Origin: Candidatus Sulfotelmatobacter sp.
GTDB taxonomy: Bacteria > Acidobacteriota > Terriglobia > Terriglobales > Acidobacteriaceae
NCBI GenBank assembly: GCA_036500765.1
Contig: DASYBM010000013.1
Coordinates: forward strand, 124,001-188,000
Direction of reading: 5' to 3'
Length of the DNA stretch: 64,000 nucleotides
Shown here: in pieces, positions 20,494-24,554 of the stretch
Layout: the number at the start of each line of letters is the position of its first letter
How positions within the stretch are numbered: position 1 is the stretch's first letter
Position numbers and translations under genes: made by a program
Notes under the pieces: model-generated
What the model was told of the DNA's origin: nothing
Seen by the model: only the letters and a program-made list of their open reading frames with translations
Database searches by the model: none

Positions 20494-21714
20494 TCAGCTG
20501 TCAGCTCTCAGTTCTTCTATTAAGCATTCTTTAGGACTCTTATCATCTCTTAAACCGAGAAACACCGGGGCTCGAAGCTTTGGTCCGCTTCCTGCGCTCG
20601 TACCCTCAGTCCACTCGGCGAACTCAATCTCCGCCACCAATTCCGGCTTCACCCAAAATACCTTTCGCAAAGCCTCAACTTCTCCAAAGAATGGATTCTT
20701 CTTGGTCTCCAACTTTTTCAGTACCGCCGAGATCTCCGCCAACGATTTCTGATTGAAACCGCTGCCTGCTTGTCCTACATGAATCAGGCGCCCTTGCTTG
20801 TCATAGAGGCCGAGGACGATAGAACCGAAATGTGCGCGACTGCCTTCCGGTTCAGTGTATCCGCCGATTACACACTCGATCCTGTGCCGGATTTTTATCT
20901 TGAGCCAGTCTCGGCTGCGGCGTTCTTCATACGGACACTCCCGCTTCTTGGCCACAATGCCTTCCAGCCCGTTGTGCTGCGCCAGCTTAAACAGGGCCCT
21001 GCCAGATTGCGCGTGGTGGTCGGAATAGCGAACGCTGTCGCCCGTCGTCAGCAGCGACTCCAATTTGTTCTTACGCTTCTCCAACGGCACGCGCCGCCAG
21101 TCGTAGCCGTCGAGATACAGCAGATCGAAGGCGTAATAAAGAACCGTCACATCGGCGTTTCCCCCCATGCGACGGCCGCCAGGACGAAAACCGGTCCGCT
21201 GCTGGATCAGACTGAACGAGGCCCTGCCGTTCTCATCGAGGGCGACCACTTCGCCGTCCAGAATGGCCGTCTTCGCCTTGACGAGATGCGCCATGTCCTT
21301 TAACTCCGGATAGCGCGGCGTCAGATCATTCTGGTTCCGTGACACCAGCCGGACTTTGCCATCCGTGATAAACGCAATGGCGCGATATCCGTCCCATTTG
21401 ATCTCAAACACCCACTCGGGTCCATCGAACGGCTCGCCGATTGATTCCGCCAGCATCGGATGGATCTTCGCGGGCATAGGCCGCTTCACGGGTTCGGATG
21501 GACTCAACGCAGAGGGCGCGGAGGACGTAGAGGATTTTGCAGAATTTGCCTTGGGTTGCGAAGTCGCCAATCCCGGGAATTTCTTAATTGCTGGTTTGTT
21601 GCCGTTATTCGACTGCTCTGCGCCCTCTGCGTTGTTCAGTTTTTCTTGTTTTTTTTTTGCCCGCTCCCAGCGGCTTTTTTCTGATCGAGTTTTGCTACTG
21701 CATCCGCCAGCCAA
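20494..21714 (-). CDS. ATP-dependent DNA ligase domain of LigD (separate frame)
   Basis: 406 codons from a TTG that lies inside the phosphoesterase gene; an ATG at 21477 would give the bare ligase. The nucleotidyltransferase motif I is EIKWDGYRA (adenylated Lys106 with Asp and Arg), followed by VRLVSRNQNDLT, ILDGEVVALD, YAFDLLYLDG, EGIVAKKRE and WLKIKIRH, a complete ligase core. The OB-fold continues to FAEWTEGT. No primase-polymerase (POL) domain follows. LigD seals double-strand breaks in end joining, usually with Ku, not seen here. The residues before ~79 are low-complexity linker, as in fused LigD proteins. See the slippery A10 run at 21649. Confidence 0.88.
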   Translation of the reverse strand: MAGGCSSKTRSEKSRWERAKKKQEKLNNAEGAEQSNNGNKPAIKKFPGLATSQPKANSAKSSTSSAPSALSPSEPVKRPMPAKIHPMLAESIGEPFDGPEWVFEIKWDGYRAIAFITDGKVRLVSRNQNDLTPRYPELKDMAHLVKAKTAILDGEVVALDENGRASFSLIQQRTGFRPGGRRMGGNADVTVLYYAFDLLYLDGYDWRRVPLEKRKNKLESLLTTGDSVRYSDHHAQSGRALFKLAQHNGLEGIVAKKRECPYEERRSRDWLKIKIRHRIECVIGGYTEPEGSRAHFGSIVLGLYDKQGRLIHVGQAGSGFNQKSLAEISAVLKKLETKKNPFFGEVEALRKVFWVKPELVAEIEFAEWTEGTSAGSGPKLRAPVFLGLRDDKSPKECLIEELRADS

Positions 21715-22370
21715 GCTGCCTTCAATTTACCGCGGCCGGCTGGGCGGCTCTTCCACTCCGCCGATCCCGCGTCTCCCGCAACATCCGCCAGAGTCCGCCC
21801 GGTGAGCACCGAATCCTCGATCCCTTCGATGTCGTATCCTTCCACGACGTGATCGTCGTGCTTCTTGATCATGAGCCATTCGTTGCCTTTGCTTCCAGGA
21901 CGCCGGCCCTTCATTTTGATCAACGCGAAATCACCCTTGAGCCGCTTGCCGTTGAGACGAAACTTCAAATCCCCTTTGGCGATCATCGCCGCAGCTTCCG
22001 CTTCGGTGCCTGGAACGTACTTCCCATTCACCGCGACTGGCGAGAGCGGCTGCCAAGTCCCTACATCCCACACGATCACCGTTCCCGCGCCATAGTTATT
22101 CTCGGGAATATTGCCCTCAAAATCGAAATACGATACGGGATGATCCTCGACCTGCATCGCCAGCCGCTTGTCCGCCGGATCCAGCGACGGGCCTTTGGGC
22201 ACTGCCCACGACTTCAGCACACCTTCCATCTCCAGCCGAAAATCGTAGTGCAGCCGCGTCGCGTCATGCTTCTGCACGACAAAGCGATTCCCCGCCTTGG
22301 TCGCCACCTTCGCAGGAGGCTCGGGCGTCTCCTCGAACCGCCGTTTCCGCTTATATTCTTCGAGTGCCAT
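21636..22370 (-). CDS. LigD-type 3'-phosphoesterase domain
   Basis: 244 residues. Strong match to the LigD PE domain: NRFVVQKHDATRLHYDFRLE with the two His and Asp metal ligands, LKSWAVPKGPSLDP, VEDHPVSYFDFEGNIP with the third His, and GAGTVIVWD. PE removes 3'-phosphate or ribonucleotide ends before ligation. Ends in a lysine-rich tail QKKAAGSGQKKNKKN and stops 78 bases into the ligase frame. In most bacteria PE and LIG are one polypeptide, so this looks like a split or frameshifted ligD. It is translated toward the ligase and converges with nothing; the NUDIX gene diverges upstream. Confidence 0.88.
   Translation of the reverse strand: MALEEYKRKRRFEETPEPPAKVATKAGNRFVVQKHDATRLHYDFRLEMEGVLKSWAVPKGPSLDPADKRLAMQVEDHPVSYFDFEGNIPENNYGAGTVIVWDVGTWQPLSPVAVNGKYVPGTEAEAAAMIAKGDLKFRLNGKRLKGDFALIKMKGRRPGSKGNEWLMIKKHDDHVVEGYDIEGIEDSVLTGRTLADVAGDAGSAEWKSRPAGRGKLKAAWLADAVAKLDQKKAAGSGQKKNKKN
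21649..21658 (-). promoter_or_regulatory. A10 homopolymer, putative -1 frameshift or slippage site joining PE to LIG
   Basis: Coding-strand run of ten A between GGGC and CAAG. In the PE frame it reads CAA AAA AAA AAC; a -1 shift yields AAA CAA GAA AAA and enters the ligase frame without a stop. This would give a PE-LIG fusion. Confidence 0.55.
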
Positions 22371-22949: not shown

Positions 22950-23411
22950 ATCCGCGCTGTCCGCAGGTTCGTCCGTGGCGGCGACGTTCGCGGCACACTC
23001 GTCCAGAATGCGATTGGCGGCGTCGACATTCTCCGGATCGACTCGCAACTTTACCCCACCAATTGCGTTGGCATTGAACCAATCCATCCGGATCATATTG
23101 TCATCAAACAGGAAGCACTCGATGCCCGCCGCGTCGAGAGCGCCCTTTGCCAGTTGGGCTTCGAGAAGGTTCCAGTAACTGCGCACCACAGTCAAGTCGC
23201 GAAATTCGGGCTCGGGCCGACGGGAATCAGGCTCCTCGTCCAGCAGATCCTGGGTAAGACCTCTGGTCGACAGTTCCGTTCGCAGCGCCTGGATCGCGAT
23301 ATCGGTGAGGCCGTCACTCTGCCGTGCAATCGCCTCCAACTCCTCATCGGTCTGGTGAGAATAGGCTTCGACCAGCCGCGCGCGTTCCTGTGCAGGATCA
23401 ATCTGGGTCAT
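22938..23411 (-). CDS. DUF2007 domain protein
   Basis: 157 residues. The N-terminal part (~1-55) is an acidic helical segment (ERARLVEAYSHQTDEELEAI) that looks like a short regulatory/adaptor region; ~75-145 matches DUF2007 (putative signal-transducing domain): VRSYWNLLEAQLAKGALDAA, GIECFLFDD, GGVKLRVDPENVDAANRIL. Cytoplasmic, no signal sequence. Function of the domain is not established. A TATGAT lies 13 bases before the ATG. The structured RNA and its terminator end 73 bases upstream on the same strand, so either could control this gene. Confidence 0.75.
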   Translation of the reverse strand: MTQIDPAQERARLVEAYSHQTDEELEAIARQSDGLTDIAIQALRTELSTRGLTQDLLDEEPDSRRPEPEFRDLTVVRSYWNLLEAQLAKGALDAAGIECFLFDDNMIRMDWFNANAIGGVKLRVDPENVDAANRILDECAANVAATDEPADSADLES

Positions 23412-23483
23412 AGCAGGAAATCATACTCCAGGGTTCTATGAGTGGCTGGCCTTATCCGTGAGAATCCGTGGCCATGGTTTCAC

Positions 23484-23535
23484 GAAAAAAATAGAACGGC
23501 CCGCAGACACTTGATCGCTCAAGGCCTGCGGGCCG
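23484..23535 (-). terminator. Strong Rho-independent terminator of the putative RNA
   Basis: CGGCCCGCAG and CTGCGGGCCG form a perfect 10-bp stem with an inner CTTGA-TCGC-TCAAG hairpin. On the minus strand it is followed by TTCTATTTTTTT. This places the end of a minus-strand transcript at about 23484. Confidence 0.85.
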
Positions 23536-23761
23536 CCCGGTGGACTGTTTGGGATTGACCAAGAGGTGGTCACTCTAACGTGGCCTCTACGGCAACTCCG
23601 GGTTCGCTTGGAGATTTTGTCTCGTCGGCGAGCCTGACCGACCTGCGTCAGGCGGAAATCAATCCTTAAATCACCGGTAGTGTGCGGGCTGTAGCTTCCG
23701 GCAATTTCGTTATACAGGTTGTACGACGAATTTGCCTGAAACCCCGCTTAGAGCAACCGCT

Positions 23762-23824
23762 CTAAGTCTCAGCCACCTCACCTGGTCTTTGATTACCCCA
23801 ACTACTGCCTTCAGAACTTGTCAT
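23762..23824 (-). CDS. 20-codon ORF with strong Shine-Dalgarno in the putative RNA
   Basis: ATG...TAG encodes MTSSEGSSWGNQRPGEVAET. GGAAAGGAGGTGGTC lies directly upstream with good spacing. The TAG stop lies in the base of the 8-bp stem at 23747-23766. It could be a leader peptide or a marker of a dual-function RNA. No biased codon run typical of attenuation peptides is seen. Confidence 0.45.
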   Translation of the reverse strand: MTSSEGSSWGNQRPGEVAET

Positions 23825-23854
23825 CCGACCACCTCCTTTCCGGTGTAATTGCAG

Positions 23855-23882
23855 ATTAGTACGAAGGCGCGCTGTGCGTCAA
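23855..23882 (-). promoter_or_regulatory. Candidate sigma-70 promoter for the putative RNA
   Basis: TTGACG (23877-23882), 16-base spacer, ACTAAT (23855-23860). The start would fall at about 23848, just before the Shine-Dalgarno of the small ORF. Confidence 0.5.
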
Positions 23883-23928
23883 CCGGCGGCAAGGTAGGTA
23901 ACGGGAGAGCCAATACGCTCCAGATGTT

Positions 23929-24318
23929 TCATCGGTTTGCGAGCGTGGCAATCTCTCCCAGTCCCGGGAGGTTTACGTCGGCAGTCACCAGCGTGAGATC
24001 AAGAACCTTGGCAGTTGCGGCGAGAAAGCGGTCCGCGGGATCGCGCTGGGGCAGAGACAAACGGCTAGAGGCCGCCACAATTTCGTGGGTTAGGGGCGCC
24101 ATTCGAAATCGGGCGGTCGCATCCGCCACCCATTCATCCAGGTCTCCCTCCAGACGCACTCGCCCCTTTTCGTGCAGAACGAGCGCTTCCCACGTACTGA
24201 TTGGCGAGAGCCACAATTCGTTGGCCGGATTGTCCAGTTCATGCTTTGTGCGCTTGCCAAGGCGATCAGGCTCACGCAAACTCCAAAGCCAGATATGAGT
24301 GTCCAGCAGGAGTCTCAA
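23929..24318 (-). CDS. vapC: PIN-domain toxin (VapC-like)
   Basis: 129 residues from TTG at 24318, which overlaps the antitoxin stop as TTGA; a longer in-frame start would run into the antitoxin gene. The PIN fold is clear: LRLLLDTHIWLW gives the first catalytic Asp, SPISTWEALVLHEKGR the Glu region, RDPADRFLAATAKV the third acidic site, and LTLVTADVNL the fourth. PIN toxins are Mg-dependent ribonucleases cleaving tRNA or rRNA. The gene is directly after a Phd-like antitoxin, the normal order. The putative RNA begins 47 bases past its stop on the same strand. Confidence 0.92.
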   Translation of the reverse strand: MRLLLDTHIWLWSLREPDRLGKRTKHELDNPANELWLSPISTWEALVLHEKGRVRLEGDLDEWVADATARFRMAPLTHEIVAASSRLSLPQRDPADRFLAATAKVLDLTLVTADVNLPGLGEIATLANR

Positions 24319-24554
24319 TCGCGCAACACTTCCCAGTCGTCTGGATCGCCAGCGGGGCTTACGATGTCGCCCAAAATTTCCATCCGTCCCTTCATCGATC
24401 CGATCCAACTGCGGTCGTTCGTCGGCGAAGGTGGGCTAACCTCAGCCACAGCCTTCCCACGGCGAGTTATGAGAATTGGCTGCCTGGTCTTCTGCACCTC
24501 GTGGAGAACGGCGAGGCATTTGGCCTTGAATTCGGAGATTGCGATTTCTTTCAT
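24315..24554 (-). CDS. Phd/YefM-type antitoxin
   Basis: 79 residues: MKEIAISEFKAKCLAVLHEV is the typical N-terminal Phd-fold DNA-binding part, then ILITRRGKAVAEVSPP. The C-terminus (~45-79) would bind and block the PIN toxin; the stop overlaps the toxin start. These antitoxins usually repress their own operon. Just upstream on the coding strand is TATGAT (24569-24574), about 15 bases from the ATG, with no Shine-Dalgarno, and a CAATTGAATTG palindrome at 24579-24589 that is a candidate operator. Confidence 0.9.
   Translation of the reverse strand: MKEIAISEFKAKCLAVLHEVQKTRQPILITRRGKAVAEVSPPSPTNDRSWIGSMKGRMEILGDIVSPAGDPDDWEVLRD

What the first reader, a model, noticed from the sequence alone, without database searches (positions are those of the whole stretch)
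23484..23848. Unassigned structured RNA of ~365 nt with its own promoter and terminator
Seen: on the minus strand a TTGACG-N16-ACTAAT promoter, then at least four strong stems (8-bp stem with GGTT loop at 23747-23766, long stem 23700-23736, 7-bp stem 23632-23653, hairpin 23557-23571) and a very strong hairpin with a T tract at 23484-23535. The stretch is otherwise gene-free. Inference: this is a functional RNA. I do not recognise tmRNA, RNase P, 6S or SRP features in it. It could be a free RNA or the 5' leader of the DUF2007 gene that starts 73 bases after the terminator.
Basis: partly seen in the sequence, partly recalled or inferred. Interest (0 to 1): 0.78.

Follow-up and report, generated by a model that had tools for sequence, protein, structure and literature searches.

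The report
Ribosome-loading RNA with tiny ORF
A stand-alone bacterial RNA in this window carries an unusually strong ribosome-binding site, a reading frame of 20 codons and a conserved fold around its stop codon; it is a distant relative of an actinobacterial small RNA for which no function was found, and the same kind of RNA turns up in several bacterial phyla.

Summary
The RNA is real and free-standing, but not simply non-coding. On the minus strand at 23848-23484 lie a conserved promoter, a 20-codon ORF (23824-23762), a structured body and an intrinsic terminator. A covariance model (R2) built from 37 relatives, none of the window's genus and none actinobacterial, finds the window's copy at 67.9 bits (E 5.6e-20) and a Nocardia Ms_IGR-5 RNA at 45.9 bits (E 4.2e-14; 142.7 bits with Rfam's own model). 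The window's copy scores only 19.4 bits against Rfam's Ms_IGR-5 (cut-off 45), so it is a divergent lineage of a wider, multi-phylum superfamily. Shared: a ribosome-binding site complementary to most of the 16S tail; a short ORF open in 171 of 172 loci (13.7 expected) with a stop at one fixed place in 170 of 171; two helices, P1 and P2, around the stop codon, with covariation. No neighbour is shared across clades, so the DUF2007-leader idea fails. Best mechanism, inferred: translation gates the fold, because a ribosome at the stop codon excludes P1/P2. The cellular output is unknown. Homology is near certain; the mechanism is a hypothesis.

The parts
23877..23882 (-). -35 box TTGACG
   Evidence: conserved in the genus; TTGAC-N15-19-T....T found upstream in 106 of 171 loci, 1.7 after shuffling
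23855..23860 (-). -10 box ACTAAT; transcript start predicted near 23848
   Evidence: conserved in most of the genus alignment; the start site itself is inferred
23827..23839 (-). extended Shine-Dalgarno sequence AAAGGAGGTGGTC
   Evidence: strongest predicted 16S-tail duplex of 42,654 sampled 20-mers of the window, -22.1 kcal/mol. The 12-mer AAGGAGGTGRTC occurs once in the genome, here, but its reversed control occurs 5 times, so a 12-mer count alone shows nothing
23762..23824 (-). short ORF, 20 codons plus TAG: MTSSEGSSWGNQRPGEVAET
   Evidence: present in 30 of 30 genus loci read; frame open in 171 of 172 distinct loci
23774..23779 (-). GAGGTG, second Shine-Dalgarno-like element, 9 nt before the stop codon
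   Evidence: GAGGT[GA] in 39 of 39 best loci of R2, but the pattern and the model were partly built on it. Duplex -11.4 kcal/mol; 2.2% of window 20-mers do as well
23770..23777 (-). P1, 5' strand GGTGGCTG
   Evidence: rewritten with compensation in L210, L211, L278 (read by eye)
23762..23764 (-). stop codon TAG, inside P2
   Evidence: a stop at this place in 170 of 171 loci, three stop types
23760..23768 (-). P2, 5' strand GACTTAGAG (competes with the local hairpin 23766-23747)
   Evidence: covariation in relatives; in the window 8 of 9 positions pair
23747..23766 (-). local hairpin CTTAGAGC-GGTT-GCTCTAAG
   Evidence: stem kept in 26 of 26 genus sequences with one G-U change, so it is hardly tested by covariation
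23563..23571 (-). internal anti-Shine-Dalgarno-like GACCACCTC, can pair with 23835-23827 or with GAGGTGG at the ORF end
   Evidence: duplexes of -20.9 and, with flanks, -19.7 kcal/mol; by eye not universal in relatives
23557..23565 (-). P2, 3' strand CTCTTGGTC
23548..23556 (-). conserved joining segment AATCCCAAA between P2 and P1
   Evidence: alignments A1 and A3
23539..23547 (-). P1, 3' strand CAGTCCACC
23484..23536 (-). intrinsic terminator: hairpin plus T tract
   Evidence: a run of 4 or more T within 90 nt of the 3' motif in 98 of 136 relatives that could be checked

Best explanation
A free-standing RNA gene, single in its genome, homologous to actinobacterial Ms_IGR-5 (Rfam RF02471) and belonging to a superfamily spread over several phyla. 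Shown by comparison: sigma-70-like promoter, Shine-Dalgarno sequence complementary to most of the 16S tail, short ORF whose frame and stop site are selected while its peptide is not, and helices P1 and P2 that pair the end of the ORF and its stop-codon region with the segments just before the terminator. Inferred: a ribosome loads at the extended Shine-Dalgarno sequence, translates about 20 codons and halts with the stop codon in the A site, where GAGGUG lies at Shine-Dalgarno distance from the P site and may hold it. That ribosome covers the 5' strands of P1 and P2. Without it, GGUGxCUG is taken by the RNA's own CACC segment and the structure closes. The fold, and so whatever the RNA does in trans, is gated by translation. 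The output (a target, a protein partner or ribosome retention) is not known.
For: Homology: R2 67.9 bits on the window, 45.9 bits on the Nocardia locus, which is Ms_IGR-5 at 142.7 bits; RF02471 over its cut-off in two genomes of the window's order (47.7 and 47.0 bits) and in an Eisenbacteria genome (61.4 bits). Translation: frame open in 171 of 172 loci against 13.7 expected, 1 and 7 in the other frames, stop at +15 in 170 of 171; ribosome-protected reads on Ms_IGR-5 in two mycobacteria (PMC4974804, passages). Structure: A3 85.1% of cells paired against 22-48% when slid, 51 double-side cells against 16.3 shuffled, 0 of 500; 78 other loci 88.7%, 86 against 16.4, 0 of 500. Peptide free outside RNA-constrained codons: the codon after GAG GTG is GCT, ACT, TCT or CCT and can pair opposite in 37 of 37 rows if either of two neighbouring bases is allowed; P1 rewritten to GGUGGUGAC/GUCACCACC (L210) and GGUGGUGUC/GACACCACC (L211). 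16S tail of relatives UGGAUCACCUCCUUU. Free-standing.
Against: No expression or structure data for the window's organism. Footprints in mycobacteria need not mean translation; the authors say so of such RNAs. The minimum-energy fold of the window RNA does not contain P1; with P1 and three pairs of P2 enforced it is 4.1 kcal/mol less stable. Selection: in A3 the outer P1 letters were required by my search patterns, so only its inner pairs and P2 are real tests there; one summary measure is weak (pairs changed on both sides 7 against 5.1, reached by 36 of 500 shuffles). In A4 the inner P1 pair is unpaired in 21 of 73 rows, and in L279 P1 is down to about four pairs (by eye). P2 is weak at the U and A of the stop codon (19 and 13 of 37). 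GAGGUG as a ribosome holder is not exceptional in strength. The 12-mer loading site is no rarer than its reversed control in the genome or in eight relatives. No output was found. The 16S tail was read in relatives, not in this genome, where the pattern search found no 16S copy.
Confidence: 0.45

Rival explanations
1. It is the mRNA of a functional micropeptide; the structure only tunes its translation.
For: Reading frame and stop site are almost invariant; within the genus MTSS...RPGEVAET is well kept.
Against: Across phyla little but GAG GTG is shared; the codons after it change with the opposite RNA strand (EVA, EVT, EVS, EVP, EVVTS, EVTLL, EVALF). Length runs from 11 to 22 codons.
Confidence: 0.22
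2. It is an ordinary base-pairing sRNA that acts through the conserved C-rich joining segment AAUCCCAA; translation is incidental or only opens the RNA.
For: AAUCYC is strongly conserved between P2 and P1.
Against: Does not explain the selected frame and fixed stop. No target search was made here.
Confidence: 0.2
3. It is a 30S decoy or parking RNA: the long 16S-tail complement holds small subunits, and the ORF is a by-product.
For: Strongest 16S-tail complement in the window.
Against: A decoy needs no stop codon at a fixed place and no P1/P2 around it; the 12-mer itself is not rarer than its control.
Confidence: 0.08
4. It is a cis-acting leader (attenuator) of the gene that follows: DUF2007 in the window, thiG in a related clade.
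For: DUF2007 starts 73 bases after the terminator and follows in 9 of 30 genus loci; a thiG-like gene follows on the same strand in 24 of 135 loci, one clade by their ORF type.
Against: The following gene differs between clades and is often on the other strand; 74 flanking proteins of diverse relatives share no family in more than 3; a terminator-like end is common.
Confidence: 0.04

Closest known systems
Ms_IGR-5, Rfam RF02471 (Actinobacteria sRNA)
   Same: Same order of parts: ACAC..GGAAGGAGGUGGUC, GUGAGGUGGCUG, P2 with the stop codon, AAU..CC..CAGUCACC, terminator; short ORF (MDSSRTREVAVR in Nocardia farcinica L201, read by eye); recognised by a model built without it.
   Different: The window copy scores 19.4 bits against a cut-off of 45; it has roughly 150 nt more inside P2 and an internal anti-Shine-Dalgarno-like segment. 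As printed, the Rfam structure pairs the ORF end with the 5' segment, not with CAGUCACC (P1 here).
CC2171, Rfam RF01867 (Caulobacter sRNA)
   Same: Consensus starts with GAAAGGAGGUGAUCCAGUG and has a closing helix just before a terminator-like hairpin; 25.5 bits on L098; read by eye, its consensus holds an open frame.
   Different: Below its cut-off of 75; its closing helix (CAUUGUC/GACAAUG) lies next to the start codon, not the stop. Only a lead.
Leader-peptide attenuators such as trp or whiB7 leaders (recalled, from no call)
   Same: Translation of a short ORF decides between folds; intrinsic terminator.
   Different: No downstream gene conserved across clades; free-standing.
tmRNA, RF00023 (features recalled)
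   Same: Structured RNA with a short ORF translated on it.
   Different: No tmRNA found in the window by ARAGORN or Rfam; initiation by a Shine-Dalgarno sequence.

Membership tests
RF02471 Ms_IGR-5 as curated | score at or above the gathering cut-off (45 bits) | tested here: not met
   window 19.4 bits; L002 25.7, L003 25.5. Met by relatives L061 47.7, L062 47.0 and L136 61.4
RF02471 Ms_IGR-5 as curated | shared ancestry with Ms_IGR-5 | tested here: met
   R2, built from neither, finds both
extended superfamily described here | extended Shine-Dalgarno; short ORF with a stop 15 nt after the first G of GAGGUG | tested here: met
extended superfamily described here | P1 and P2 | tested here: met
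   covariation in relatives; in the window P1 can form with a bulge, P2 with one U-U mismatch, though the minimum-energy fold lacks P1
extended superfamily described here | ORF is translated | not testable with these tools
   selection on the frame; footprints in mycobacteria reported
RF01867 CC2171 | score at or above the gathering cut-off (75 bits) | tested here: not met
   no match listed at window 23400-23960 (E <= 10) or in G000 (E <= 1); 25.5 bits in L098
cis-regulatory leader of DUF2007 | conserved downstream gene | tested here: not met
   9 of 30 genus loci, some loci cut short; other genes in other clades
tmRNA | recognisable tmRNA (tRNA-like domain and tag) | tested here: not met
   no tmRNA in the window; no Rfam match at gathering

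The most novel reading that the evidence does not exclude
A widely conserved class of free-standing RNAs whose fold reports whether a ribosome has loaded and reached a stop codon: an internal ribosome sensor that uses one Shine-Dalgarno sequence to load, a second one to hold the terminating ribosome, and its own anti-Shine-Dalgarno mimic to take over when ribosomes are missing.
Probability: 0.25. Interest if true: 0.9.

Novelty: new variant of a known kind. Interest (0 to 1): 0.72.

Why it matters
Ms_IGR-5 is filed in Rfam as an actinobacterial sRNA, and the passages found here give it no function. This finding turns it into one lineage of an RNA also found in genomes labelled Acidobacteria, Zixibacteria, Eisenbacteria, Binatia and other Deltaproteobacteria, Spirochaetia and Sumerlaeota, with one match in each matching genome of four searches, a reading frame and stop site under selection, and a testable two-state fold. 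Several bench tests (start, stop and P1 swap mutants) follow directly.

Tried and rejected
Rejected: leader of DUF2007; tmRNA and Rfam families at gathering score; a purely non-coding RNA; the miRNA, CRISPR-repeat and plasmid ctRNA matches (far below their cut-offs). RNAalifold on the genus alone gave little covariation (3 of 53 pairs), because the conserved parts hardly vary there; its pairing of GAGGUGG with CCACCUC is an alternative to P1 that I cannot exclude as a second state. The pairing of the Shine-Dalgarno sequence with the internal anti-Shine-Dalgarno segment was followed by eye and is not universal. CC2171 as a proteobacterial relative stays a lead; its matches in 6 control genomes may be the antisense of the 16S 3' end, which I did not check. 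Matches of R2 under 30 bits (12 of 76, 5 of 7, L280) should not be trusted singly, though L211 (28.8 bits) reads as a true copy. Rarity of the 12-mer loading site as evidence: dropped, because the reversed control is as common. Literature: four papers hold Ms_IGR-5 or ncMSMEG15794c; I read passages only; the original Ms_IGR-5 paper (DOI recalled) is not held. Searches for the sequence motifs (10 papers, by title unrelated) and for related concepts (none; 15 of 87 listed; 5) showed no study of this RNA's function in their listings; of those papers I saw titles and abstract starts only.

Full report
Observation. The 365-nt stretch folds at -154.8 kcal/mol, z -6.0, and 0 of 100 shuffles do as well. 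Nothing in the window reaches an Rfam gathering score, and ARAGORN finds no tRNA or tmRNA.

Conservation in the genus. By blastn 36 of 61 genomes have a match at E <= 0.01, 33 of them among the 37 of the same genus, own included, some in part only. There is one match in its own genome. In the aligned copies the promoter, the 5' end ACACCGGAAAGGAGGTGGTC, the block AGACCAGGTGAGGTGGCTGAGACTTAGAGC..GCTCTAAGC and the 3' block GAGTGACCACCTCTTGGTCAATCCCAAACAGTCCACCGG hardly change, while the middle varies.

A short ORF. After the Shine-Dalgarno sequence an ATG opens a frame of 20-22 codons in 30 of 30 genus loci, with length changes in whole codons. In the window it is MTSSEGSSWGNQRPGEVAET, 23824-23762.

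Link to a known family. Ms_IGR-5, RF02471, matches below threshold and along the whole RNA: 19.4 bits in the window, 25.7 and 25.5 in L002 and L003, none listed in L012, L017 and L022; the cut-off is 45. The same Rfam model passes its cut-off in 2 of 41 genomes searched, both of the same order (47.7 and 47.0 bits), and in an Eisenbacteria genome (61.4 bits). Of seven further labelled relatives it listed matches of 24-38 bits.

Reach. Model R1, from the genus, found 37 of 396 Acidobacteriota genomes. Model R2, from 37 diverse sequences, finds 76 of 396 Acidobacteriota genomes at E <= 0.001, 64 of them at 30 bits or more, and 42 of 44 listed in the window's family; 36 of 98 in the phylum of the Zixibacteria genome G453; 8 of 149 in the phylum of the Spirochaetia genome G456, one of these probably spurious; and 7 of 148 in the phylum of the Binatia genome G454, of which 3 reach 28 bits. 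Each matching genome in these four searches has one match. It is patchy outside the window's family.

Independent test of homology. A3 holds no actinobacterium and, by kinship table, titles and ORF type, no row of the window's genus; the nearest row to the window is L034, another genus of the family, 77% over 101 bases. R2 finds the window copy at 67.9 bits, E 5.6e-20, as the only match in 64 kb at E <= 10, and the Nocardia farcinica locus at 45.9 bits, E 4.2e-14, which is Ms_IGR-5 at 142.7 bits by Rfam.

The frame is selected. Among 172 distinct loci (regular expression: extended Shine-Dalgarno and GAGGT[GA].CTG, which asks neither for a start nor for a stop) the frame that contains GAG GTG is open from a start codon 4-15 nt after AAGGAGG in 171; shuffling the letters between gives 13.7, and the other two frames 1 and 7. 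A stop codon stands exactly 15 nt after the first G of GAG in 170 of 171 (TAG 145, TGA 13, TAA 12, CAG 1). A stricter listing gave 168 of 171 (L090 lacks the stop, L113 is cut, L134 lacks a common start). These loci are related to each other, so they are not independent events; the spread over phyla is what carries weight.

The peptide is not. The codon after GAG GTG is GCT, ACT, TCT or CCT. In 37 of 37 rows of A3 its first base can pair with one of two neighbouring bases opposite (34 with one, 26 with the other); as U pairs with both A and G this is a lenient test. In loci found by model alone, P1 is rewritten: GGUGGUGAC/GUCACCACC in L210, GGUGGUGUC/GACACCACC in L211, GGUGACUC/GAG..UCACC in L278; L279 keeps only about four pairs. 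Their peptides end EVVTS, EVVSS, EVTLL and EVALF, with the stop still at +15 (for these four I read frame, stop and pairs by eye, because the script's pattern missed them).

Structure. P1 pairs GGUGxCUG with CAGx'NACC just before the terminator; P2 pairs the last codon and stop region with the bases just before AAUCCC. On A3: 85.1% of cells paired against 22-48% in slid controls, 51 cells changed on both sides against 16.3 after shuffling, covariation score 0.283 against 0.150, none of 500 shuffles as high; the number of pairs changed on both sides is less striking, 7 against 5.1, reached by 36 of 500. A caution: the letters GGUG.CUG and CAG..ACC were asked for by my patterns, so in A3 six P1 pairs never vary and test nothing; P2 was not selected for, and it carries the signal. 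On 78 other loci aligned by the model: 88.7%, 86 against 16.4, 0.274 against 0.148, none of 500, and 8 pairs against 5.1 (2 of 500); this alignment is fitted to the structure and leans to it, and the inner P1 pair fails in 21 of 73 rows there. P2 is weakest at U and A of the stop codon.

Ribosome complementarity. The 16S rRNA of five relatives ends in UGGAUCACCUCCUUU. AAAGGAGGUGGUC pairs with most of that tail; the variable letter in GGUGRUC is A or G, both of which pair with the opposite U. The duplex (-22.1 kcal/mol) is the strongest of 42,654 20-mers sampled every third base on both strands of the window. AAGGAGGTGRTC occurs once in the 5.04-Mb genome, at this RNA, but the reversed control occurs 5 times; in eight relatives the 12-mer occurs at 1-4 places each, no more rarely than the control overall, and 5 of 18 places are the antisense of 16S. 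So the site is unusual by strength within the window, not by rarity of the word. GAGGUG, 9 nt before the stop, is complementary to the anti-Shine-Dalgarno CACCUC at a distance that suits a ribosome with the stop codon in its A site; its G and A lie outside P1 and yet stay (39 of 39 best loci, checked, and by eye in L210, L211, L278, L279). Its strength is ordinary: 2.2% of window 20-mers pair as well. The position argument is mine and untested.

Context. DUF2007 follows in 9 of 30 genus loci. Among 135 loci of relatives with a downstream ORF, a thiG-like gene follows on the same strand in 24, of one clade by their ORF type; the next largest groups hold 6, 5 and 4 (thiG named from its appearance and its sequence). 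No Pfam family occurs in more than 3 of 74 flanking proteins of diverse loci. So the gene is free-standing across clades, while within a clade its place is kept.

Literature. Ms_IGR-5 was seen by RNA-seq in S. lividans (PMC8079986, passage) and among transcription units of S. avermitilis (PMC8780764, passage), as ncMSMEG15794c in M. smegmatis (PMC10454040, passage), and with ribosome-protected reads in M. abscessus and M. smegmatis (PMC4974804, passages), whose authors say that such RNAs lack clear evidence of translation. No functional study came up.

Mechanism. Shown: promoter, loading site, selected frame and stop, P1/P2, terminator, one copy, no neighbour fixed across clades. Inferred: translation of the ORF decides whether P1/P2 can close. 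Unknown: the output. The window's lineage adds an internal anti-Shine-Dalgarno-like segment (-20.9 kcal/mol with the loading site) that could close the loading site as well; it is not universal. Against: the minimum-energy fold of the window RNA lacks P1, and enforcing P1 and three pairs of P2 costs 4.1 kcal/mol.

Noticed in passing
L098:2351-2528: Caulobacter sRNA CC2171 (RF01867) matches the same interval as Ms_IGR-5 (25.5 and 27.0 bits); its consensus also holds AAAGGAGGUGAUCCAGUG and, by eye, an open frame.
   Followed up: partly
L200 (IMGVR_UViG_3300050020_000295): One viral contig in the IMG/VR scan carries a copy of this RNA (80.3 bits with R2); it may be host flank of a prophage.
   Followed up: no
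L009:1268-1317: A second, opposite-strand copy of only the promoter and 5' end of the RNA (80% over 50 bases) lies about 180 bases from the full copy.
   Followed up: no
L040, L044, L045 and 21 further loci: In one clade a thiG-like gene follows the RNA on the same strand in 24 of 135 loci examined.
   Followed up: partly
window 23929-24554 (-): A Phd/YefM-type antitoxin and a PIN-domain gene lie directly upstream of the RNA; both also at 6 of 30 genus loci.
   Followed up: partly
window 20494-22370 (-): Two adjacent genes hold the ligase and the 3'-phosphoesterase domains of a LigD-like DNA repair enzyme as separate proteins.
   Followed up: no
L142:2677-2722: An Acido-Lenti-1 RNA (RF01687, 45.7 bits) lies about 2.5 kb from the copy of this RNA.
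   Followed up: no
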